Origin: Maribacter orientalis
GTDB lineage: Bacteria > Bacteroidota > Bacteroidia > Flavobacteriales > Flavobacteriaceae
NCBI RefSeq assembly: GCF_900109345.1
Contig: NZ_FNZN01000002.1
Span: forward strand, 434,001-498,000
Length of the DNA stretch: 64,000 nucleotides
Reading direction: 5' to 3'
Below the pieces are notes generated by a model that worked only from the letters and a program-made list of their open reading frames with translations, did no database searches and was not told the DNA's origin. Both the position numbers and the translations under genes were made by a program. Numbering within the stretch: the first letter of the stretch is position 1; the number at the start of each line of letters is the position of its first letter. Below, in pieces: positions 4,742 to 44,225 of the stretch.

Positions 4742-6268
<1,527 letters not shown>

Positions 6269-31905: not shown

Positions 31906-34092
31906 TTGAAAACATTAGCCACTGATTTTCTCTTAAAGGAGTCTCCAAATGCAATTGCTATAGTGGACACTAAGTTAAACTTTATTAACTACTCAAACCA
32001 ATGGCAAAGCGATTTTACACCAAACAAAACAGACATAATTGGTAAGCATCTTTTTGATGTCATTTCAGAAATGCCAATTTTATTCAATAACGCAATCAAA
32101 GTAGGATTAACTGACAAGGAAAACATCAATGCTGGGCAAAAATTCATTTTACCAAGCGGAAAAGTACAGTGGTTGAAATGGAAGATTTCTCCAATTAGAA
32201 ACGATATTAATATTTTAGAAGGATTAGTTATTTATTTAGAAGACATTACCGCTGATAAAAGAGAGCTCGAACTACTGCAAACGGCAGAAACTGTAGCAAA
32301 AATAGGAGGCTGGGAGGTTGACCTACAAAAAAATTCGCTTTATTGGACCAAAACCACCAAGGACATACACGAGGTGCCAGAAGATTTTATACCTGATTTA
32401 GCACAGGGTATTAATTTCTATAAAGAAGGAATTCACAGAGAAAAAATAACCGAATTGGTCAGTGCTGCAATTGAAGAAGGTAAGCCTTGGGACACCGAAT
32501 TAATTATTATTACAGCCAAAGGAAACGAAATTTGGGTAAGGGCCAAAGGTGAAGTTGAAGCGGTCAATGATAAACCAATTCGAATTATAGGAACTTTTCA
32601 AGATATTGATGAAAGAAAAAAAATCGAATTAGCGCATGAGGAAATTTCTGAACGTTTAAAGCTTGCTACACAAACCTCCCAAATTGGTATTTGGGAGTAT
32701 GACCTTATAGCGAATGAATTAATTTGGGATAATGCGATGTATAACATCTTTGGAGTTGATGAAAATCAATTTGCTGGAGTATTCGAGGCTTGGGAATCTA
32801 CCATACACCCTGATGACAAAGAAAAAGCCTTAAAAGCCACAAATGATGCCATAATAGGAGTAAAAGATTTTGACGAAGAGTTTAGAATCAAATTACAGAA
32901 CGGCGAAGTAAAATATATAAAAGGTCTTTCTAAAACTATAAGAGATTTAAAAGGCAAACCTATTAAAATGACTGGGGCCAATTGGGATATTACTATGTTA
33001 CGCAGTACAGAATTGAAATTGGAACGAAGTACTGAATCATTTACAGAGACTTTCGACAATGCAGCAATCGGTATGGCATTGATAAGTCCTGAGCTCAAAT
33101 GGTTAAAAGTGAATAAAAGTTTACTGACTAGCTTAGGGTATTCAGAAAAAGAGTTATTAGGAATGAGGACCACAGATATCACGCATCCTGATGATTTAGA
33201 AAGCAGTACAAAAACAGTGTTTAACGGTGTAAAAGATACCTATCAATTACAAAAAAGATATTTTCATAAAAATGGACATATAGTTTATGCAATTATTGGC
33301 GTAACTCCGGTTAAGGATTTAGATGGAAACCCTAGCCATGCCATAGCCCAATTTCTAGACATTACCGATAGAATTGAAGGTGAAAAGAGACTTGAAACTT
33401 TAGTAGAAGTTACAAAAAGCCAAAATGATAGTCTATTGAACTTTGCACATATCGTTTCTCATAATCTACGTTCACATTCAACGAATATGACAATGCTTGC
33501 AAAATTTTTGTCACAAGAAGAAGATGAAAAAGAGCTGAAAAATATTAATCGAATGATTACAGATGCTGCCGAAAGCCTATCTGAAACCATTGCGCATTTA
33601 AATGATGTTGTTCAAGTTAAAACAGGGGCTTTGAAGAATCTTCAAAGTATTAGCGTATTAAATACAATTGAGCAAATTAAAAAGAGCATAGGTGGCTTAT
33701 TAGAGAAGCAAGAGGCCATTATAAAAATAGATATTAAAAATTCTCATTTTGTAAATGCCGTTCCTGCATATTTAGAAAGTATATTTTTAAATATTCTAAC
33801 CAATGCATTAAAATATAGTTCTCCAGACCGTACCCCTTTAATTGAAATAAAATCACAGCTTAAAAAAGAAACTGTGCTTATCAGCTTTAAAGATAATGGA
33901 CAAGGAATCGATTTGAAACGACATGGCGATAAAATATTTGGCATGTACAAAACCTTCCATAAACATAAAGACGCGAAAGGTATCGGTTTATTCATTACAA
34001 AAAATCAAATAGAAGCTATGGGTGGGAGCATTAAAATAGAAAGCGTCGTAGACCAAGGCACCACCATTTTCATAGAACTTAATAAAATTTAA
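31906..34092 (+). CDS. Four-PAS sensor histidine kinase
   Basis: A 728-residue cytosolic kinase with no transmembrane segment. Four PAS domains lie at about 10-120, 125-240, 250-368 and 375-490, then an H-box at about 512-530 (NFAHIVSHNLRSHS, probable H519), and a HATPase_c domain at about 590-728 with N box NILTNALKYSS, DNGQGI and KGIGLF. The start is TTG, because an in-frame stop lies close upstream and the first ATG would remove half of PAS1. A receiver gene follows after 1 nt. It resembles the PAS protein at the window's left edge, but has the ATPase domain which that one lacks. Confidence 0.92.
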   Translation: MKTLATDFLLKESPNAIAIVDTKLNFINYSNQWQSDFTPNKTDIIGKHLFDVISEMPILFNNAIKVGLTDKENINAGQKFILPSGKVQWLKWKISPIRNDINILEGLVIYLEDITADKRELELLQTAETVAKIGGWEVDLQKNSLYWTKTTKDIHEVPEDFIPDLAQGINFYKEGIHREKITELVSAAIEEGKPWDTELIIITAKGNEIWVRAKGEVEAVNDKPIRIIGTFQDIDERKKIELAHEEISERLKLATQTSQIGIWEYDLIANELIWDNAMYNIFGVDENQFAGVFEAWESTIHPDDKEKALKATNDAIIGVKDFDEEFRIKLQNGEVKYIKGLSKTIRDLKGKPIKMTGANWDITMLRSTELKLERSTESFTETFDNAAIGMALISPELKWLKVNKSLLTSLGYSEKELLGMRTTDITHPDDLESSTKTVFNGVKDTYQLQKRYFHKNGHIVYAIIGVTPVKDLDGNPSHAIAQFLDITDRIEGEKRLETLVEVTKSQNDSLLNFAHIVSHNLRSHSTNMTMLAKFLSQEEDEKELKNINRMITDAAESLSETIAHLNDVVQVKTGALKNLQSISVLNTIEQIKKSIGGLLEKQEAIIKIDIKNSHFVNAVPAYLESIFLNILTNALKYSSPDRTPLIEIKSQLKKETVLISFKDNGQGIDLKRHGDKIFGMYKTFHKHKDAKGIGLFITKNQIEAMGGSIKIESVVDQGTTIFIELNKI

Positions 34093-34093
34093 T

Positions 34094-34498
34094 ATGAAGA
34101 AAGTACAAGTATGCTGTATTATAGATGACGACCCCATTTTCATATACGGAACCAAAAGAATCATTAAAGAAGTTGATTTTGCAGAAAATATAATCGTTTA
34201 TAATAACGGACAAGAGGCAGTAGACGGGCTTAAAGAAATCATTAATGAGGGAGGCTTTCTGCCTGAAGTGATATTTTTAGATTTAAACATGCCTATCATG
34301 AATGGATGGGAGTTTTTAGAGGAATATAAAAATTGTCAATATGACATCTCTAAAAAGACCACCATTTATATCATTAGCTCCTCGGTAGACCCTAGAGATT
34401 TAGAACGTGTTAAGCACTATAATGAAGTTGACATGTATATTTTAAAACCAATTACACCAGATGACTTAGGCAAAATTTTAAGCTCGACAACAGTATAG
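34094..34498 (+). CDS. Single-domain response regulator
   Basis: A 134-residue receiver starting 1 nt after the histidine kinase gene, so it is the probable cognate partner. DDD at 11-13 forms the acidic pocket, Asp63 in FLDLNMP accepts phosphate, ISSS is the switch region and LKPIT carries the Lys. There is no output domain. It shares its N-terminal pattern (CCIIDDD) and length with the receiver at 34702, so the two look like paralogues. Confidence 0.93.
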   Translation: MKKVQVCCIIDDDPIFIYGTKRIIKEVDFAENIIVYNNGQEAVDGLKEIINEGGFLPEVIFLDLNMPIMNGWEFLEEYKNCQYDISKKTTIYIISSSVDPRDLERVKHYNEVDMYILKPITPDDLGKILSSTTV

Positions 34499-34505
34499 CT
34501 TATAC

Positions 34506-34522
34506 TGCCATCTTGGCATTTT
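34506..34522 (+). terminator. Weak hairpin after the first receiver gene
   Basis: TGCCA (34506-34510) and TGGCA (34514-34518) form a short stem with a 3-nt loop followed by TTTTAGTTTT, 8 nt after the stop codon. It may attenuate transcription before the second receiver gene. Confidence 0.4.
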
Positions 34523-34701
34523 AGTTTTATTAAATACAGGTCTAAAACCTTAAAGATGTTAGAATTACATTAATTTATATGTTAATAAAAGGTATTGTAA
34601 ATAATACTATTAATTACTACCACACCTTACTATTTCCCTATCTTCACGATTTATTATTTGCCCTATTAACACAGAAAGATTTAATTAAGAATTAATCACA
34701 A

Positions 34702-35109
34702 ATGAGCAAATTTCATAGCTGTTGTATCATTGATGATGACGAGTTTTTTTCTATAAGCAGTAAAAGAGTTTTAAAACAATTTGACTTTTCTGACAACATC
34801 TTATATTACACCGGGGGTCAAGAAGCACTTGATGGTTTAATTGGCCTAGTAGTTGAAAATATACCATTACCAACAATAATTTTTCTTGATTTAAATATGC
34901 CCAGAAGAGATGGATGGTCATTTCTAGAGGAGTTTCAAGACCTGCCTGGAGAAAAAATTGAACATGTTCAAATTTATATTACCAGTTCTTTCATTAGCCC
35001 AGAGCTTATGGAAAAGTCGAAAAATTACAGTTTGGTAAAAGATTATATCGTTAAACCCTTAACGGAAAATGCTGTTAGAAAGATAATTGATTCACAAGAA
35101 TTGGAGTAG
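34702..35109 (+). CDS. Single-domain response regulator (paralogue)
   Basis: A 135-residue receiver similar to the one at 34094: CCIIDDD start, Asp63 in FLDLNMP, ITSS switch, VKPLT Lys. It is separated from that gene by 203 nt that contain a weak hairpin and no open frame, so it probably has its own promoter. It may compete for, or receive phosphate from, the same kinase. It converges on the lamin-tail lipoprotein gene with 2 nt between stop codons. Confidence 0.92.
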   Translation: MSKFHSCCIIDDDEFFSISSKRVLKQFDFSDNILYYTGGQEALDGLIGLVVENIPLPTIIFLDLNMPRRDGWSFLEEFQDLPGEKIEHVQIYITSSFISPELMEKSKNYSLVKDYIVKPLTENAVRKIIDSQELE

Positions 35110-35111
35110 TT

Positions 35112-36491
35112 CTATCTTACTCCGGGCGTAAAGTTAAAAGGAGCATTTTGTGGTATATTTATAGTACCATTATTACCCGTGTCATTATATATAATCCATT
35201 CACTTTCTGTGAAAACCGAGTTTCCTGATATCACCTCTATTATTCTTTCTGCTTTCCCATCTTCAAATTCATGGTTTGTATTACTACCATCTTCCCCAAT
35301 AACACCAAACATATCTATTACAGTACCGAAAGGGTCTACTAAGGCAATATTATCATCGCCATTAGAATCTGCTGGTGAATTTGTACCCACAGTAATTGTT
35401 GGCAAAAACCCATAGACCGTTTCAAATTCTAAAGCATTTGGCGAAATTACTATAAGTCCGTTGGCGTTTATACTATACTCAGATAAGTCTATAGATGAAC
35501 TCACTTCTGTGCTTGAATTCGTATATCGCACCAAGGTCCAGCCATTTAATGATAAAGGTTCATTTGAAGAATTATATAATTCTAAAAATCTAGCTCCGGC
35601 ATTATTGTCAGGATCAGCGATTTCAGAAATAAAAATAAAGTTCGATGTAAACTCATCGATTAACTCTACACAGCGTACTTTATTAAAATCTACATCATCT
35701 ACCGTTCTAATAATTAATTGAAACTCATTTTTATCCATCGTTAAAACACCAGTAGCAGTTCCCATTTTATCAGGGATAATTTGCGCTTGAAAATCAGAAT
35801 AGCCACTATTTAAAAGCATTAACTCATTATCATCACAATCAACTAAAGTTCTTTGTGTCTCTTCTTTTTCAACTGCAAAAGATTTACCTAATTCATCTTC
35901 TTTAAACTCAACATTAGCTACACGCACCAACGTATTCACCATACTTTCGTTTAATTCTAAAATAGAAACAGACGTAGGAGAAATGTTTTCAACTGGATCA
36001 CAGGACAATAAAATATGATTAAAAACAACACTGTTGGGCAACCTACCTACACTACGATTGCCGAAAGAGGTAAATACGCCTCCTATTTTGAATAAACCGT
36101 TAGATTGACCTAAATACAGTCCTTTTAACTTTATAAAAACTGTCTGGCCTAAATCAAAAAATAAATGTGAATCCCTTAATTCCAATTCTATCTGTAAACC
36201 CTCTGTAGGATTACTCGACGCGTTTTGAAAATGAAGTGTATTGAAAAAATTACCTGACTTGTCAGAAGAAACAATATACCCTTTAACAACCCAATCTTCT
36301 TGAATTTGAAAAGTCTCGCCAGCGTATAATTTTTTTAGTTCTGATATACTTACAATACTGAAATCTTCATCAGAACAAACTAATTTAGGTTCATAAAAGT
36401 CCCTATTTTTTACACATGCGTTAAACACTAGCATAATGCTTAAAACATAGATTTTAAATAAATAATTGTTTTTAAAAATCATCTTAATCAC
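35112..36491 (-). CDS. DUF5689 / lamin-tail domain lipoprotein
   Basis: A 459-residue lipoprotein (lipobox FNAC, Cys at about 26). A DUF5689 OB-fold-like region covers about 45-270 (WVVKGYIVSSDKSGNFFNTL, then VDDVDF). A lamin-tail domain follows at about 285-440 (FIFISEIADPDNNAGARFLE, LNGWTLVRYTN, NALEFETVYG). Lamin-tail plus OB-fold modules accompany nuclease domains in secreted nucleases such as ExeM. It lies 7 nt after the frameshifted receptor gene and near a divergent secreted nuclease, so surface binding of DNA is a reasonable inference. Confidence 0.85.
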   Translation of the reverse strand: MIKMIFKNNYLFKIYVLSIMLVFNACVKNRDFYEPKLVCSDEDFSIVSISELKKLYAGETFQIQEDWVVKGYIVSSDKSGNFFNTLHFQNASSNPTEGLQIELELRDSHLFFDLGQTVFIKLKGLYLGQSNGLFKIGGVFTSFGNRSVGRLPNSVVFNHILLSCDPVENISPTSVSILELNESMVNTLVRVANVEFKEDELGKSFAVEKEETQRTLVDCDDNELMLLNSGYSDFQAQIIPDKMGTATGVLTMDKNEFQLIIRTVDDVDFNKVRCVELIDEFTSNFIFISEIADPDNNAGARFLELYNSSNEPLSLNGWTLVRYTNSSTEVSSSIDLSEYSINANGLIVISPNALEFETVYGFLPTITVGTNSPADSNGDDNIALVDPFGTVIDMFGVIGEDGSNTNHEFEDGKAERIIEVISGNSVFTESEWIIYNDTGNNGTINIPQNAPFNFTPGVR

Positions 36492-36498
36492 ATCATAT

Positions 36499-39238
36499 TT
36501 AGAAACTAAAGGCCATATTTAAAAAGTAGGTTCTACCGAAACCATACCAATATTTTGGACCAAAAGATGGGTTACCGCTAAAATTATCTTGCTTCAGTTG
36601 ACCATAATTGCCATTTCTACTTTGTTCATACCCCCCAGTTCTAAAGGTGGTGTCAAAGACATTGTTGACACTTGCAAAGACACTAAAATATTTTCCCTTC
36701 TTTAGCCAAGACTTACCTCCTACTAGGTAATAGATAGAAATTATCTAACCTATTTTGTTTTAAAAGTTTTTGAACATTTTCATCAGTAGCATCTGGGAAT
36801 CTTTGTCCCGTTTCTGGATCTACTAAAAAACTTTTAGTTCTGGTTATTGTAGAAATATTTGCATAATTATTGGCCAAATAATTTGCAGTCATGCTTACCC
36901 ACCAATATTTTGGGTCTCTATATTCAATTCCTACAGCAATTGCCTTCTGTGGGCCTTGCGCCAATTTATATCCTTTAATAGCAGACTGGCCCAAAAACTT
37001 TGAGCCAGAAACGTCAATTAATTCTTCGGTCGCCCCAGCAGTATCAAAGTTAATTGTTACGAAAGGGTCACTAGCATATAGATACTTCGAAACCGATGTT
37101 ACTAAAGATAATTTTACCGCGCTCGATAATTGATACTCTAAACCTAGTTCTGTACCTAAATGCAACTTATCTAAATCGGTTAATACCTCTTGCACAAAAT
37201 CTGAACCTATACCAGAATCAACGAAAAAGAAATTAACATCTGTACCATCTTGAAATCGCGTATAGAAACCTGTTAGTCTACCGGTAAGTTTTGGCATTCT
37301 AAGAAAATAATTTAAATCTATACTAGTAATTTTTTCACTTTGCAAATTAGGCACAACCGTATTATTCTCTCTTGGATTTATAAAGACATTTTGAAGCAAC
37401 GGCGCCTTATTTACATAAGCGGCATTAGCTGTAGCCCAATGTCTTCCTGTAATATTATAAGTTAACCCAGACTTACCTGACCAATTTGAAAATTGTATTG
37501 GTTCACTTTCTCCAAGCGAAGCATCCGGAAAGCGTTCATTTTGAAACAATCCAATTCTTTGATAATCTACTTTGCTGTATTTACCAGATATAAATGCATT
37601 TACTTTATCGTAGTTTAAATTTAGTTGGGCATACATGTCAGTCATATTCCCTTCAAAATCATACTTGTAATTAAAAATATCGCCATTCTGTTTATTAACA
37701 TTCCCAACAACATCGTTGAGTGTTTCAGAAAATGTGTCGATATCTCTGTGATATTTAGCACCAATCAAATCATCGATTAGAGCATAATTTTTAGACGTTA
37801 AATGTTTATAGGTTAGTCCAAAATCTAACCTTAAATGACTATTCATATCTATGTTAGTACTTACCCTAGCTGTAAACTGATTATCTTTTGTCGTATCATC
37901 ATACAACACATATGCGGCTTCACCTTCTTGGCCTAAACTAGTATTAGCCTTAAATATATTGCCCCAATTCATTTGCGGATTTTGAATAAAACCTTCCTCA
38001 GCCAAAACCGCACTTTCAAAATTTGCCCCAATTGGACTATTCAGATAAAAACTCGGTAAATATCTATAGTAGGTAGGGTCAGGATTTGGAGCATTAAAAT
38101 AACCCAACCTACTTCTTTTATAAATACCGGTTTGGTAAGCTAAACCTGCATTTATTACTAATCCGTTAGATTCATGATTATAATTCAATAAAAATAGTGG
38201 CTCCCGTATATTTCGCTCTCTAGAATTTCTAATCTTACCGTTCTGAAAACCCCAGTATGGATTGTATCTATTTCCTTGAATTTGAAACACTTCTTCGGTA
38301 ATTGCAGAAGAACGACCTCTTCTGTTCGAAGCTACAATAGCAGTCGCAGATAGTGTATTTTGCTTATTTAGTAAATATTCAACAGAGCCATATAAAGAAT
38401 ATGAATCATATAAAGTTCCAGCAATATAACCTTCCTTAGCCCATCTTCTAGAAGCCGAAAGTATATAGGCATATTTGCCCTTTTTAAGTCCAGAATTGTA
38501 TGTTGCCATAAGCCTACCACTATATGTTCTGTTCGATACAGATGATGATAGTCTAGTGCCAGGTCGTAACCCTGATGGCCGTAAATCTATATTAGTATTT
38601 CCTAGAATACCACCAAAAGTGAAATCTGAAGCACTTAACCCATTAGCATATTGTTGATTTCTGATTACATCATTCAGCCCTCCCCAATTATTCCATTGAG
38701 GTCTGCCGTCGAACATTTTGTTCATGGGTATACCGTTTAGATGCACCTCTCCAAATTGAGAATCATATCCTCTTACCCTAAAAAATGCTTGTCCGAAATC
38801 AAAAGCAGCTCTATTAAGAAAAATATCTTTAGTAGATTGAAGCAATGCCAATGCATTAGAGTTAACCTCATCATCAAGCAACTCATCATCAGTAATGTTT
38901 ACCAGATTTATAGTTTTCTCAAAGGTTATATCACGCTCTAAATGTATTGTTCCTAAGTCTAAATCAACACCATCAAGAAAAATAGGTATTCGCTTAATAA
39001 CATAATCTGGTGCAGTAATATTTAAAATAAATTGCCCTTTCTTCGAAGTAGCTATACTAAACTCTCCCATATCATTGGTGCCAATTGATAAGACGCTTCC
39101 CTCAACCATTACTACTGCATTCGTAATTTTCTCCCCATTGGTCGTCTCTTCAACAACTCCTGTAATAGTAGAAGTGGCCTGAGATTGTAGGGTGCAAATT
39201 TTAAACACTACTAATAAAAACAGTAAATGTTTTATCAT
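36499..39238 (-). pseudogene. TonB-dependent receptor interrupted by a frameshift
   Basis: The main frame (39238 to 36713) encodes 841 residues: signal peptide, CarboxypepD_reg-like domain (about 20-105), plug (about 130-230) and most of a barrel, ending abnormally in NFYLLPSRR. The next frame (36726 to 36499) continues with 75 residues starting LVGGKSWLKKGKYFSVFA and ending FLNMAFSF, which is the typical end of this receptor family, with the terminal Phe. A net loss of 2 nt (or gain of 1) near 36725 explains this. It may be an inactivated gene or a sequence error. It is followed by the DUF5689/lamin-tail gene. Confidence 0.85.
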
Positions 39239-39334
39239 TTAAAAACTCAACGTATTGTTACTAAGCCATTAAGATACATTTTTAAGAAATAATTAACGTG
39301 AAAATTCCGTATACTAGCTAATAATTAAGACACA

Positions 39335-40384
39335 ATGCCCTCGATGAAGCTATATCTATTCTATTTTTTACTTTTTTCTCAAATGGGTTTAATTGCACAA
39401 GAGGCAGCCAGTTATCAAATCAGAACCGTTGCTTTTTACAATTTGGAAAATCTTTTTGACACGAAAAATGACACATTAATTTTTGACGATGACCGAACAC
39501 CAACAGGAAAAGATCACTGGACGGAAGAACGCTATATAGAAAAAATTACTCAGATGTCTAAAGTGATTTCTGAAATTGGTTCTTCAGAAAACAAAACTGC
39601 TCCTGATATTATTGGTGTTTGTGAAGTTGAAAACTTAAGTGTCTTACAAGATTTGGTACACCATAGTAATCTATTACAGACCAATTATGGTATTATACAT
39701 TTCGATTCGCCGGATGAACGCGGTATTGATGTAGCACTGCTATATAAAAAGGATGCATTTATTCCCGTAAATTTTAATAGTCATCGGCTTTTGCTTTTCG
39801 ATTTAGCTGGAAAACGCAACTACACTAGAGATCAACTTATCGTTGAAGGATTATTAGATAACGAAAAGATATATTTTCTAGTAAATCACTGGCCTTCTAG
39901 AAGTGGTGGTGAGGCCAGAAGCAGGCCTTATAGGTTAGAGGCCGCTAAACTTAACAAACGCATTATTGACTCAGTAAGAAGACAAGATATCAATGCTAAA
40001 ATAATTAGTATGGGCGATTTTAATGATGACCCTATAGATCCTAGTTTTAAAAAAATCTTAAACGTACAGAAGAACTATAAAAATCTAGATTCACTTAGTC
40101 TCTATGGCCCTATGGAAAAACTATTTAGAAAGGGAAAAGGTTCTTTGGCATATAGAGATAAATGGAATCTTTTTGACCAATTATATATGACCTATAGCCT
40201 TTTAGATAAGCAAAAACAAACGTATAGTTATTGGAAAGTAGGTATATTTACACCCAGTTATTTAATGGATCCAAAAGGAAAATATAAAGGCTACCCATTA
40301 CGCACCTATGCGGGAGGTAGCTATATTGGTGGATATAGCGACCATTTTCCCGTTTTTCTTCATTTAATTAAAAAAGTAAATTAA
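39335..40384 (+). CDS. Secreted endonuclease/exonuclease/phosphatase-family protein
   Basis: A 349-residue EEP-fold hydrolase with a signal peptide (about 1-21, ending LIAQ). The catalytic set is complete: Asn/Glu in FYNLENLFD and GVCEVENL, the HWPSRSGGEARSRPYR loop, Asp/Asn in MGDFNDDP, and Asp/His in GYSDHFPVF. EEP enzymes cleave phosphodiesters; secreted members often degrade DNA. It is divergent from the TonB receptor / lamin-tail lipoprotein pair, with 96 nt between starts. The ATG at 39344 is an alternative start. Its stop codon interlocks with that of the DUF1080 gene. Confidence 0.9.
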   Translation: MPSMKLYLFYFLLFSQMGLIAQEAASYQIRTVAFYNLENLFDTKNDTLIFDDDRTPTGKDHWTEERYIEKITQMSKVISEIGSSENKTAPDIIGVCEVENLSVLQDLVHHSNLLQTNYGIIHFDSPDERGIDVALLYKKDAFIPVNFNSHRLLLFDLAGKRNYTRDQLIVEGLLDNEKIYFLVNHWPSRSGGEARSRPYRLEAAKLNKRIIDSVRRQDINAKIISMGDFNDDPIDPSFKKILNVQKNYKNLDSLSLYGPMEKLFRKGKGSLAYRDKWNLFDQLYMTYSLLDKQKQTYSYWKVGIFTPSYLMDPKGKYKGYPLRTYAGGSYIGGYSDHFPVFLHLIKKVN

Positions 40385-41543: not shown

Positions 41544-44225
41544 TTAGAATTCGTAACGCAAGGTAACGTTCCAAGTTCTACCCCAACCAAAGTAACCTTG
41601 GTTAGAAACGGCAATACCATCATAAGTTTCATCACCAGCTTCTGCAAAATTAGCAGTAGTTAAACTTGATAAATACTCGGTATCAAAAACGTTATTAATA
41701 TTACCTCTAATTTTCAATTGCTTCAATTTATCAACTCCTAAAGGAACTTTAAAAGTAACACCTGCATCTAATAAATTAAAAGAAGGTAGTTTAAGGTTTT
41801 CTTTTACTGCGCCTACATCAGAATATAAGTTGTCATAATATCTCCAGTCAGAATCAACTGAAAATTTTTGGCTTATTTTGTAAACAACACCTAACCCACC
41901 TGATAATTGTGCAGCACCACCAACTTTACCGCCATCAAAATCTTCATTTTCAAAGCTAATAACATTTCTATTTTCATCTGTTATTTGTTGTACGGCTTCA
42001 CCTTTATATTGCCAATCTCCTACAGATAGAAACCCGTTAAAAGAAAGATCAGTTGCCGGTCTTAATTTAAAATCTAATTCAACACCAGAGTGTAATTGCT
42101 CTGTACCAAAGTTAGTAGTAAATTGAACCACATCATCAACTATATTCGAGCTAGATACCACTCTATCTTTCCAAGAGGTTCTATATAAGTTTAAGTTTGC
42201 TGAGAAAATTGAACTTTTAAAACCGTAACCTGCCTCTAAACCAAATATCTTTTCATTTTCAGTTAATGGGTTTACTTGGTTTGTAAAATTCAAGTAAATA
42301 TTATCATGGTACGGTTGACGGTTGTAGTATCCAGTGTTTACATAAAAAGCGTGAGCTTCAGAAGCTTTGTAGCTAAACCCTGCTTTAGCATTGTAACCAA
42401 AATTATCTACTTTTTCAGAATCTGTACCAGGAGTTATACCTGCAGGTAAGGCTACACCAGTTGATTGGCTAGAAGTACCGTCAATTAATGATTGATCCGC
42501 ATACTGGTAATAATCAAATCTTTGATGGTATTGATTAGAAACCGAACCTTGGAAAAAGGCAGACAAATTATCATTTGCATATTCTAACTGAGTAAATAAA
42601 CCACCATATGAAATACGCTCTTCGTTATTATAGCCAATTTTTTGATCTAATGGATAAGAAGCAAATGCAGCTTCCCAACCAGAAGGTTTAAATGTTTCTG
42701 TTGCCGTAGCAAACTTGTATGTACCAAAACTACCGTAAGTTTGGTGATCATTGTTTTGGTCTCTTAAACGAATATTATCGGTAAACGAATTTAAACCATG
42801 TAGATTAGAAGCAACTCTAAAGTGCTTACCATAATAAGTTCTTAAATCGAAACCTACGTTCCAAGAAAGTTCGTCGGTAATTTTAGTTTCATAGTTGGTA
42901 ATTAAACCATACCAACTATGCAAGTTCATTGATGATCTTGTAATGTAAGCTGGTTCAGAACCAAAATTAACACCAGCACCATCAGTTACTACAGCATTTT
43001 GAGCATAAATTGCATCGTAATCTATACGACCATCTTCAGTTCTTATGCGGTTACCTAGGTTACCCGTACCACCACCGTTACCCCATGAGGCATATAATAC
43101 TGTAGAAAGGTTAGACTTTTCACTGATAGTCCAATCCCAGTTTAAGTTAGCTACTGGCTTGTGATAGAAGTTTCTTCTTTCAGTCAAATACTGTCCCTTG
43201 TAAGTACCCCAGTTGTTGTTGTAACGTAAACCATTTTCTAAGTAGCTAGAAATAGATTTTGTAAAGTTTTGATCGTGAAATTGTGGAGCGCCAGTAATTA
43301 AAAAGTTAAATCCATGCTTTTCGTTTGGTTTATAACCAGCAGAAATAAAGTACGTTTGACCTTCACCAAAGTTACCTTCGTTATAACCATCTCCTTGCCA
43401 GTGCGAAAGCATTACACTTAATCCCCAACCTTTATCAGAAACACCAGTGTTATAACCTGCAGTTGTTTTAATGTAATTATTGTTAGCAACTGTTGCGTAA
43501 GCAAAACCACCTGCATTCATCTCTGTTGCTTTGGTTACAAAGTTAACCGTACCACCAACAGAAGAAATTGCTAATTTAGAAGAACCTAAACCACGTTGTA
43601 TTTGAACTCCACTGGAAATATCATTTAAACCAGACCAGTTAGACCAGTACATTTTACCGTCTTCCATACCGTTAATCGGCTGACCGTTTAAAAGAAATGC
43701 TGTGTTGTCTTGCTCAAAACCACGAACTCTAATGTCAGAATCACCATAACCACCTGCTTGTCCTGAAACATAAACCGATGGAGTGTTTACCATTGTCATA
43801 GTAATATCTTGTGTACCAATCTTCTCTTGTATAATTTCAACAGGTATAGAAGAAACGGCGATTGGCGTTTGTCTATCACTAGCAAGATCAATAATACCCC
43901 TACCAACTACAACAACACCCTCTAACTCTTCAGCATTAGGCTCTAAAACAATTGAACCGATATTACCTGAAGCAGTAAAAGAAATTTGTTTAGAATCAAA
44001 TCCAATGTAAGATATTACTAAAGTTCCAGTTGCTGAACTTACGTTAATTGTGAAATTCCCATCAAAATCAGATGAAGTACCATTCGTGGTACCTTTTACC
44101 ATTACGGTTGCACCAGGTAAAGGTGAGTTAGAATCACCATCTAGCACAGTACCAGTAATAGTTCCTTGTGAAAAAGCAGATACGGTCATTAAAAATACCG
44201 CAATCGCAAAGTACATTTTTTTCAT
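41544..44225 (-). CDS. TonB-dependent receptor with carboxypeptidase-like N domain
   Basis: An 893-residue receptor. It has a signal peptide (about 1-19), a CarboxypepD_reg-like domain (about 20-105, GTVLDGDSNSPLPGATV) and a plug (about 120-235, with VRGFEQDNTAFLLNGQPING, MYWSNWSGLNDI and SVGGTVNFVTKAT). The barrel ends RTWNVTLRYEF with terminal Phe. The plug resembles that of the frameshifted receptor at 36499, so the two are related. It is monocistronic with a strong terminator. The ligand is unknown. An inverted repeat and paired AACGTTAA sites precede it. Confidence 0.94.
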   Translation of the reverse strand: MKKMYFAIAVFLMTVSAFSQGTITGTVLDGDSNSPLPGATVMVKGTTNGTSSDFDGNFTINVSSATGTLVISYIGFDSKQISFTASGNIGSIVLEPNAEELEGVVVVGRGIIDLASDRQTPIAVSSIPVEIIQEKIGTQDITMTMVNTPSVYVSGQAGGYGDSDIRVRGFEQDNTAFLLNGQPINGMEDGKMYWSNWSGLNDISSGVQIQRGLGSSKLAISSVGGTVNFVTKATEMNAGGFAYATVANNNYIKTTAGYNTGVSDKGWGLSVMLSHWQGDGYNEGNFGEGQTYFISAGYKPNEKHGFNFLITGAPQFHDQNFTKSISSYLENGLRYNNNWGTYKGQYLTERRNFYHKPVANLNWDWTISEKSNLSTVLYASWGNGGGTGNLGNRIRTEDGRIDYDAIYAQNAVVTDGAGVNFGSEPAYITRSSMNLHSWYGLITNYETKITDELSWNVGFDLRTYYGKHFRVASNLHGLNSFTDNIRLRDQNNDHQTYGSFGTYKFATATETFKPSGWEAAFASYPLDQKIGYNNEERISYGGLFTQLEYANDNLSAFFQGSVSNQYHQRFDYYQYADQSLIDGTSSQSTGVALPAGITPGTDSEKVDNFGYNAKAGFSYKASEAHAFYVNTGYYNRQPYHDNIYLNFTNQVNPLTENEKIFGLEAGYGFKSSIFSANLNLYRTSWKDRVVSSSNIVDDVVQFTTNFGTEQLHSGVELDFKLRPATDLSFNGFLSVGDWQYKGEAVQQITDENRNVISFENEDFDGGKVGGAAQLSGGLGVVYKISQKFSVDSDWRYYDNLYSDVGAVKENLKLPSFNLLDAGVTFKVPLGVDKLKQLKIRGNINNVFDTEYLSSLTTANFAEAGDETYDGIAVSNQGYFGWGRTWNVTLRYEF

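What the first reader, a model, noticed from the sequence alone, without database searches (positions are those of the whole stretch)
35112..40384. Split extracellular-DNA scavenging locus: receptor, OB-fold/lamin-tail lipoprotein, secreted nuclease
Seen: a TonB receptor gene, a lipoprotein gene (DUF5689 OB-like plus lamin-tail domain) 7 nt after it, and a divergent secreted EEP-fold hydrolase with complete catalytic residues. Known: in secreted nucleases such as ExeM, lamin-tail, OB-fold and EEP nuclease domains occur in one chain. Inference: here the same modules are divided between a surface lipoprotein and a free nuclease and tied to a TonB receptor, which would give bind, cut and import functions for DNA, nucleotides or phosphate.
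Basis: partly seen in the sequence, partly recalled or inferred. Interest (0 to 1): 0.72.

Follow-up and report, generated by a model that had tools for sequence, protein, structure and literature searches.

The report
Bacteroidota DNA-uptake locus with nuclease
A gene trio shared by many Flavobacteria-like bacteria (an outer-membrane receptor, a surface lipoprotein with a DNA-binding-like fold, and an exported nuclease-like enzyme) most likely takes outside DNA into the cell for natural transformation, and the enzyme is an untested candidate for the nuclease of that pathway.

Summary
The three genes are real and form a conserved unit: receptor, DUF5689 lipoprotein and divergent EEP hydrolase stand together in 52 of 60 loci of the window's family, 72 of 74 named and 10 of 12 unnamed Weeksellaceae loci, and 6 of 10 loci from more distant families. 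Correction: the window's receptor is not one open frame. It breaks near 36727, and its conserved last 75 residues lie in another frame, so the '7 nt' spacing holds only across that break. DNA binding and import are supported, but the best-supported purpose is natural transformation. The receptor and lipoprotein are orthologues of RA0C_RS04915/04920, both essential for transformation of Riemerella anatipestifer (PMC8459023). ComEC is missing in 4 of 7 good genomes without the pair, against 0 of 93 others. DUF5689 models as tandem OB folds. By gene order the EEP gene corresponds to RA0C_RS04910, for which that paper reports no deletion; it is a candidate for the pathway's unidentified nuclease. 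Its substrate is unproven. If the receptor break is real, uptake may be dead in this strain. 'Split ExeM' is only an analogy: 21 of 59 lipoproteins carry the lamin-tail domain.

The parts
35112..36491 (-). Lipoprotein gene, orthologue of RA0C_RS04920
   Evidence: Only DUF5689 match in the genome; lipobox Cys26 present in 59 of 59 aligned lipoproteins, window included; such a gene directly downstream of the receptor in 56 of 60 loci of the window's family
35691..36353 (-). DUF5689 domain; model is two OB-like folds
35301..35636 (-). Lamin-tail domain; stands where DUF5017 stands in other relatives
   Evidence: Pfam E 1.4e-13; LTD in 21 and DUF5017 in 23 of 59 lipoproteins
36713..39238 (-). TonB-type outer-membrane receptor, main open frame (841 aa), orthologue of RA0C_RS04915
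   Evidence: Relatives in 111 of 120 genomes of the family at E <= 1e-20, 108 of them at E < 1e-60; best hit in this genome of the Riemerella-like receptor, 402.9 bits against 75.4 for the next gene
36499..36726 (-). Receptor C-terminus in a different frame (75 residues plus stop)
   Evidence: 34 synonymous against 9 non-synonymous codon differences from the same-genus relative; the segment is present in 28 of 28 other receptors aligned
39239..39334 (.). Divergent intergenic region between receptor and EEP gene
   Evidence: The promoter-like element TAnnTTTG seen in 22 of 51 such regions is absent from the window's own on both strands
39335..40384 (+). EEP-fold hydrolase (PF19580) with an N-terminal hydrophobic stretch (seen by eye), candidate exported nuclease; counterpart by position of RA0C_RS04910

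Best explanation
The locus is the outer-membrane stage of the DNA-uptake system that Flavobacteriales use for natural transformation. Step 1: the surface lipoprotein binds incoming DNA through its tandem OB folds (inferred from the fold). Step 2: the TonB-type receptor carries the DNA across the outer membrane with TonB energy (inferred; in R. anatipestifer its orthologue and TonB are shown to be needed for transformation). Step 3: the EEP enzyme, encoded back to back with the receptor, cuts or trims DNA at the surface or in the periplasm (inferred, untested). Step 4: ComEC passes a single strand into the cytoplasm, where DprA and RecA act (genes shown to be needed in R. anatipestifer; ComEC and DprA genes are present elsewhere in this genome). 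In this assembly the receptor frame is broken, so in this strain the system is either recently inactivated or misread by sequencing.
For: (1) Deletion of RA0C_RS04915 or RA0C_RS04920 abolishes transformation; RS04920 has DUF5689 + DUF5017, RS04915 a carboxypeptidase-regulatory domain in a predicted outer-membrane protein (PMC8459023). (2) Locus L209, from an unnamed Weeksellaceae genome (G310, 2,164,087 bases), has the order ComEC - 145 aa - carboxylase - EEP - receptor - DUF5689 lipoprotein, fitting tags RS04895 to RS04920 gene for gene. Its receptor and lipoprotein carry just the domains that the paper names, and DprA lies about 45 kb further on, which fits RS05130. (3) In the window's genome that receptor's best hit is the window receptor, 402.9 against 75.4 bits; for the EEP protein 282.9 against 186.9; the lipoprotein is the only DUF5689 match. 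(4) tonBA and tonBB mutants transform poorly, and tonBA has no iron-uptake defect (PMC8383284). (5) Among 100 high-quality genomes of the family, ComEC is absent in 4 of 7 without receptor and DUF5689 and in 0 of 93 others (p = 8.9e-6). DprA is absent in 3 of the 7 and partial in a fourth (not counted in the 93). (6) The trio is kept while its surroundings change. (7) DUF5689 models as tandem OB folds; Foldseek's top matches are DNA-binding HIN-200 and Teb1.
Against: The structural resemblance is at domain level (TM-score 0.16-0.26 by query length, rmsd 8-15 A for the matches named), and OB folds also bind RNA and proteins. The DUF5689 domain is acidic (pI 4.55; median 4.4). F. johnsoniae carries the homologues but was not transformable under the conditions tried (PMC8459023, PMC7965970); authors of the latter think its type IV pilus homologues may suffice for uptake. 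The locus is far commoner than demonstrated competence. G032 has ComEC (679 aa) and DprA without the pair; G293 has ComEC without the receptor. The EEP gene survives in 2 of the 7 genomes without the pair and the Riemerella screen did not hit it, so its tie is looser. Five of the seven genomes without the pair are under 2.3 Mb, so genome reduction may explain part of the co-loss. The receptor frame is broken in this strain. No experiment has been done on the window's own genes.
Confidence: 0.72

Rival explanations
1. Nutrient scavenging: the trio binds extracellular DNA, cuts it and imports oligonucleotides or phosphate as food.
For: An EEP hydrolase is adjacent. Conservation is very wide: 111 of 120 genomes of the window's family, 95 of 100 Weeksellaceae genomes. 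F. johnsoniae has the homologues but was not transformable (PMC8459023 discussion; PMC7965970 abstract). R. columbina transformation rises without phosphate or peptone (abstract).
Against: Deletions abolish transformation (PMC8459023). ComEC absence coincides with absence of the pair, and a degrade-and-import system would not need ComEC. In R. anatipestifer removing phosphate lowers transformation (PMC8383284 abstract). No shared phosphate-type repeat was seen by eye in the regions. The two purposes do not exclude each other.
Confidence: 0.2
2. The receptor and lipoprotein import something other than DNA (for example a phosphorylated or lipid-derived nutrient), and their loss blocks transformation only indirectly.
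For: Structural neighbours of the EEP model include a mannosyl-6-phosphatase, nocturnin and a sphingomyelinase as well as nucleases. The DUF5689 domain is acidic. The authors of PMC8383284 put the tonBB effect down to iron and guess a nutrient effect for tonBA.
Against: Loss of transformation is complete (below detection) for both genes (PMC8459023). Co-absence with ComEC points to DNA. The lipoprotein's closest folds are nucleic-acid binders.
Confidence: 0.1
3. In this strain the locus is a recent pseudogene: the receptor break is real and the cell has lost DNA uptake. (This can be true together with the best explanation.)
For: Two-frame receptor with no long single-base run at the break (longest 4). 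Split receptors are also seen in at least 2 more of the 111 genomes with a hit (G108, G021) and in Chryseobacterium angstadtii L201.
Against: The C-terminal piece shows no decay (34 synonymous against 9 non-synonymous differences). The lipoprotein and EEP frames are intact. A sequencing or assembly error in a 26-contig draft is possible; one of the other breaks (G108) lies at a 7-base run.
Confidence: 0.45

Closest known systems
RA0C_RS04915/RA0C_RS04920 natural-transformation pair of Riemerella anatipestifer (PMC8459023)
   Same: Orthologous receptor plus DUF5689 lipoprotein in the same order. A divergent EEP neighbour is inferred from gene order in L209, where ComEC lies about 3.7 kb from the receptor.
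   Different: The window lipoprotein has a lamin-tail domain instead of DUF5017, its receptor frame is broken, and ComEC lies about 0.26 Mb away on the same contig (G000:C15:206936).
ExeM/NucH extracellular nucleases (NCBIfam NF033680, NF033681)
   Same: The lamin-tail region matches the ExeM model (48.2 bits) and the EEP protein weakly matches the NucH model (27.5 bits).
   Different: Far below both cut-offs (1300 and 300); separate chains.
EndA/NucA nucleases of Gram-positive competence (PMC12236230, passages)
   Same: Proposed role: an exported nuclease that processes DNA during uptake.
   Different: EEP fold, Gram-negative organism. I recall EndA/NucA as having a different (beta-beta-alpha metal) fold; not tested here.
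SusC/SusD-type nutrient uptake pairs
   Same: Receptor followed by a lipoprotein gene.
   Different: No SusC/RagA match for the receptor and no SusD match in the lipoprotein.
M949_1556 family lipoprotein (NCBIfam NF052645)
   Same: Shared stretch, residues 10-292, 175.3 bits.
   Different: Below the family cut-off of 475 bits.

Membership tests
Riemerella-type natural-transformation receptor/lipoprotein pair | Receptor orthologous to RA0C_RS04915 | tested here: met
   Best hit of the L209 receptor in G000 is the window gene, 402.9 against 75.4 bits.
Riemerella-type natural-transformation receptor/lipoprotein pair | DUF5689 lipoprotein directly downstream, same strand | tested here: met
   only DUF5689 match in the genome.
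Riemerella-type natural-transformation receptor/lipoprotein pair | Second domain DUF5017 in the lipoprotein (accessory, found in 23 of 59) | tested here: not met
   LTD instead; LTD in 21 of 59, so not treated as defining.
Riemerella-type natural-transformation receptor/lipoprotein pair | Intact receptor frame in this strain (needed for function) | tested here: not met
   Frame break near 36727.
Riemerella-type natural-transformation receptor/lipoprotein pair | Deletion abolishes natural transformation | not testable with these tools
   Shown for the Riemerella genes only (PMC8459023).
TonB-dependent receptors | Plug and barrel profiles | tested here: inconclusive
   Plug below cut-off in the window, Plug in 12 of 29 relatives, barrel in none: a divergent group.
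EEP hydrolase family PF19580 | Full-length profile match and invariant active-site residues | tested here: met
   E 2.4e-115, profile 1-311 of 311; residues recalled as catalytic invariant in 40 of 40.
EEP nucleases that cut DNA | DNA hydrolysis | not testable with these tools
   Fold neighbours mix DNA nucleases and phosphatases.
ExeM/NucH nucleases | NCBIfam cut-off reached; LTD, OB and EEP in one chain | tested here: not met
   48.2 against 1300 and 27.5 against 300 bits; separate genes.
SusC/SusD pair | SusC/RagA profile and a SusD partner | tested here: not met
   No TIGR04056 hit for the receptor; no SusD hit in the lipoprotein.
Type IV pilus DNA uptake | Competence pilus genes | not tested
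   This genome was not searched for pilus genes. The 16 genes in Table 1 of PMC8459023 include none named as pilus genes; PMC7965970 finds partial pilus homologues in F. johnsoniae.

The most novel reading that the evidence does not exclude
The EEP enzyme is the unidentified nuclease of the Bacteroidota transformation pathway: an exported EEP nuclease that works with a TonB-driven receptor and an OB-fold surface lipoprotein to cut and strip double-stranded DNA, so that one strand can pass through ComEC. That would be a Gram-negative counterpart of EndA/NucA in an outer-membrane uptake machine driven by TonB instead of a pilus.
Probability: 0.35. Interest if true: 0.78.

Novelty: new variant of a known kind. 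Interest (0 to 1): 0.55.

Why it matters
How DNA crosses the outer membrane of Bacteroidota is open. Two genes were linked to it in one duck pathogen in 2021, and a 2025 review of transformation has no occurrence of Riemerella, Bacteroid-, Flavobacteri- or TonB in its main text (term search). Here the pair is shown to stand with one extra gene in most loci examined in two families and in six of ten loci from more distant ones. Its lipoprotein gets a nucleic-acid-binding-like fold, and its absence coincides with absence of ComEC. That names a specific candidate for the missing nuclease and makes 'which Bacteroidota can take up DNA' a question that gene content can address.

Tried and rejected
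Split-ExeM idea: rejected as homology (sub-cut-off scores) and as the general design (LTD in 21 of 59).

Phosphate-starvation promoter: the window intergenic region has TTAAG/TTAAC-like repeats, but I saw no shared set by eye in the regions printed. A TAnnTTTG element stood out in 22 of 51 regions on the receptor strand (mean 5.1, maximum 13 in 200 single-base shuffles) and in 22 of 51 on the other strand, but not in the window's own region. No formal motif search was run.

Programmed frameshift in the receptor: not pursued. 28 of 28 other receptors in the alignment carry the C-terminus in one frame; L077 and L078, broken elsewhere, and L046, an assembly split, were not put into that alignment.

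Solved structures by sequence: no hit for the EEP profile; one hit, outside DUF5689, for the lipoprotein. The LTD half of the lipoprotein modelled at pLDDT below 50, probably because the permitted alignment held Weeksellaceae relatives, in which no LTD was detected; nothing is claimed about its fold. No EEP subfamily could be excluded by fold.

Receptor-absent genomes: eight high-quality genomes had no hit at E < 1e-60. G064 was moved to 'present but diverged', because DUF5689 and EEP flank a 28%-identical receptor there. With all eight, ComEC absence is 4 of 8 against 0 of 92, p = 1.8e-5. Counting ComEC frames under 550 aa as lost gives 6 of 7 against 2 of 93. DUF5689 and DprA were searched only in selected genomes, so they have no control rate over the 93.

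Dropped rows: L208 (a more distant locus) was left out of the named Weeksellaceae count. The phylum search scored only four candidates per genome, so its 30 of 198 is a lower bound.
Full report
What is in the window. Weeksellaceae relatives are 'same order', so it belongs to Flavobacteriales; its family (f1) is most likely Flavobacteriaceae, which is my inference. The lipoprotein gene (35112-36491, minus strand) and the EEP gene (39335-40384, plus strand) are intact and at the stated coordinates. Pfam gives DUF5689 plus lamin-tail for the first and Exo_endo_phos_3 (PF19580) over the full profile for the second. The receptor is not intact in this assembly. Its open frame runs 36713-39238, and the remaining C-terminus lies in another frame at 36502-36726 with a stop at 36499-36501. 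28 of 28 other receptors aligned end with this segment. In the window it is 88% identical to the same-genus relative, with 34 synonymous and 9 non-synonymous codon differences and 39 of 46 base differences at third positions. So the break is either very recent or a sequencing or assembly error. The 7-nt spacing to the lipoprotein gene is true only when counted from this second frame.

Conservation. The receptor has a relative in 111 of 120 genomes of the family at E <= 1e-20 (window genome included); 108 of these are at E < 1e-60. It is in 95 of 100 Weeksellaceae genomes (E <= 1e-60) and, at phylum level, in 30 of 198 genomes (E <= 1e-60), 10 of them outside the order. I fetched flanks for 60 genomes of the family: the 40 best-scoring hits other than the window, and 20 that I picked from the lower ranks, the two split receptors included. 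Counting a same-strand DUF5689 gene within 300 nt and a divergent EEP gene within 600 nt gives 56, 54 and both in 52 of 60. For 74 named Weeksellaceae loci (mostly Chryseobacterium and Epilithonimonas, close relatives of one query, so not independent) the counts are 74, 72 and 72; for 12 unnamed Weeksellaceae that I chose, mostly small genomes, 11, 10 and 10; for 10 loci of other families 7, 6 and 6. Some misses are artefacts: L046 is split over contigs (an EEP gene lies beside the receptor's N-terminal part on another contig), L077 and L078 have broken receptors, and L197 lies at contig ends. Genes beyond the trio change between families (compare), so the trio is kept for itself. In 14 of the 60 loci a second EEP gene lies within about 10 kb downstream of the receptor, beyond the lipoprotein and on the opposite strand.

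Function by orthology. DUF5689 occurs in one paper of the library searched: a transposon screen for natural-transformation genes of Riemerella anatipestifer (PMC8459023; abstract, sections 19-21 and passages seen). There, clean deletions of RA0C_RS04915 (carboxypeptidase-regulatory domain, predicted outer membrane) and RA0C_RS04920 (DUF5689 + DUF5017) abolish transformation, as do insertions in ComEC (RS04895), DprA (RS05130) and RecA (RS04870). The unnamed single-contig genome G310 (2,164,087 bases; I recall this as the length of R. anatipestifer ATCC 11845) has the order ComEC, 145-aa gene, carboxylase, EEP, receptor, lipoprotein, with CarboxypepD_reg in the receptor and DUF5689 plus a sub-threshold DUF5017 in the lipoprotein. 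That fits tags 04895 to 04920 in steps of five. Its DprA gene lies about 45 kb past the lipoprotein, which suits tag 05130. Hence RA0C_RS04910 should be the EEP gene. The paper names RS04910 once, as the upstream gene whose transcription was checked in a transposon mutant; its main text gives no deletion of it. In the window's genome the G310 receptor finds the window receptor (402.9 bits; next gene 75.4) and the G310 EEP protein finds the window EEP gene (282.9; next 186.9). The lipoprotein is the only DUF5689 match. ComEC and DprA genes are present.

Energy. In the same Riemerella strain tonBA and tonBB mutants transform poorly, and only tonBB lowers iron uptake (PMC8383284; abstract, section 20 and passages). 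That is what a TonB-driven DNA receptor predicts. The authors themselves guess at an effect through nutrients.

Co-absence. In the 100 high-quality genomes of the 120, seven lack both the receptor (no hit at E < 1e-60) and DUF5689: G004, G030, G032, G046, G052, G092, G099. ComEC is absent in four of them (G004, G030, G052, G099) and in none of the 93 others (Fisher p = 8.9e-6). Two more (G046, G092) have short ComEC frames (544 and 459 aa). DprA is absent in G004, G052 and G099 and partial in G030. In Weeksellaceae, G283 lacks receptor, DUF5689, DprA and ComEC. Its genus-mate G303 keeps the receptor but lacks ComEC and has no lipoprotein gene in the 9 kb downstream; its EEP side runs off the contig and could not be judged. 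It looks like an intermediate of decay. Counter-examples are G032 (ComEC and DprA without the pair) and G293 (ComEC without the receptor). Genomes were treated as independent and five of the seven are under 2.3 Mb, so the p-value is optimistic. A likely EEP orthologue is kept at 52-63% identity in G004 and G032, so that gene is less tightly tied than the lipoprotein.

Mechanism proposed. Shown in Riemerella: receptor, lipoprotein, TonB, ComEC, DprA and RecA are needed for transformation. Inferred here: capture by OB folds, TonB-powered passage through the receptor, trimming by the EEP enzyme. The Riemerella authors leave the step from double to single strand to 'an unidentified protein'. The EEP gene is a natural candidate because of its position, its family and its likely export. 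A role at the surface (making ends), in the periplasm (removing one strand) or as a phosphatase that recycles the degraded strand are all compatible with the data. Whether a pilus takes part was not tested: Table 1 of PMC8459023 names no pilus gene, while PMC7965970 suggests that pilus homologues in F. johnsoniae may suffice for uptake (section 14).

What is known and what is not. The receptor-lipoprotein pair and its wide presence in Flavobacteriaceae were published (PMC8459023). In my paper searches I saw no title or abstract start that describes the EEP gene as part of this locus, the OB-fold nature of DUF5689, or co-absence with ComEC; four papers were opened (PMC8459023, PMC8383284, PMC7965970, PMC12236230), none read whole. 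PMC8459023 also states that the receptor's homologue was only found in Flavobacteriaceae; here trios occur in two families outside the order. Most subscription journals and all preprints are missing from that library, so absence from it is weak evidence.

Verdict. A real, conserved and probably important DNA-uptake locus. The window's copy carries a broken receptor frame that needs re-sequencing.

Noticed in passing
window 41544-44225 (-): A second TonB-type receptor of the SusC/RagA kind (TIGR04056, 95.6 bits, below its cut-off) stands close by; it is the next-best hit of the Riemerella-like receptor in this genome (75.4 bits).
   Followed up: partly
L209 4404-6212: In the Riemerella-like genome and two others of its genus (L211, L213) ComEC lies about 3.7 kb upstream of the receptor start, beyond the EEP gene and on the same strand as it; in the three other genus members fetched it does not.
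   Followed up: partly
L209 15490-19854: Cas2, Cas1 and Cas9-type genes start about 1.4 kb after the lipoprotein gene in the Riemerella-like genome, next to the DNA-uptake locus.
   Followed up: no
L047, L052, L081, L085: Two or three DUF5689 stretches (tandem or enlarged lipoproteins) downstream of the receptor; L052 also has a second receptor copy.
   Followed up: no
L077, L078, L201: Receptor frames broken in other genomes too (unnamed G108 and G021, Chryseobacterium angstadtii); the G108 break lies at a 7-base run. Sequencing errors or repeated loss of competence.
   Followed up: partly
14 of 60 loci, e.g. L051, L055, L061: A second, paralogous EEP gene beyond the lipoprotein on the opposite strand, so the locus is flanked by EEP genes on both sides.
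   Followed up: no
window 31906-35109 (+): PAS-rich histidine kinase followed by two single-domain response regulators, convergent with the lipoprotein gene; relatives of the kinase and of at least one regulator are also next to the locus in L032-L037.
   Followed up: no
control genomes: The DUF5689 model also rings in Bacillus subtilis and Bacteroides ihuae. I recall a wall-bound nuclease with OB folds (YhcR) in B. subtilis as a possible match; not checked.
   Followed up: no
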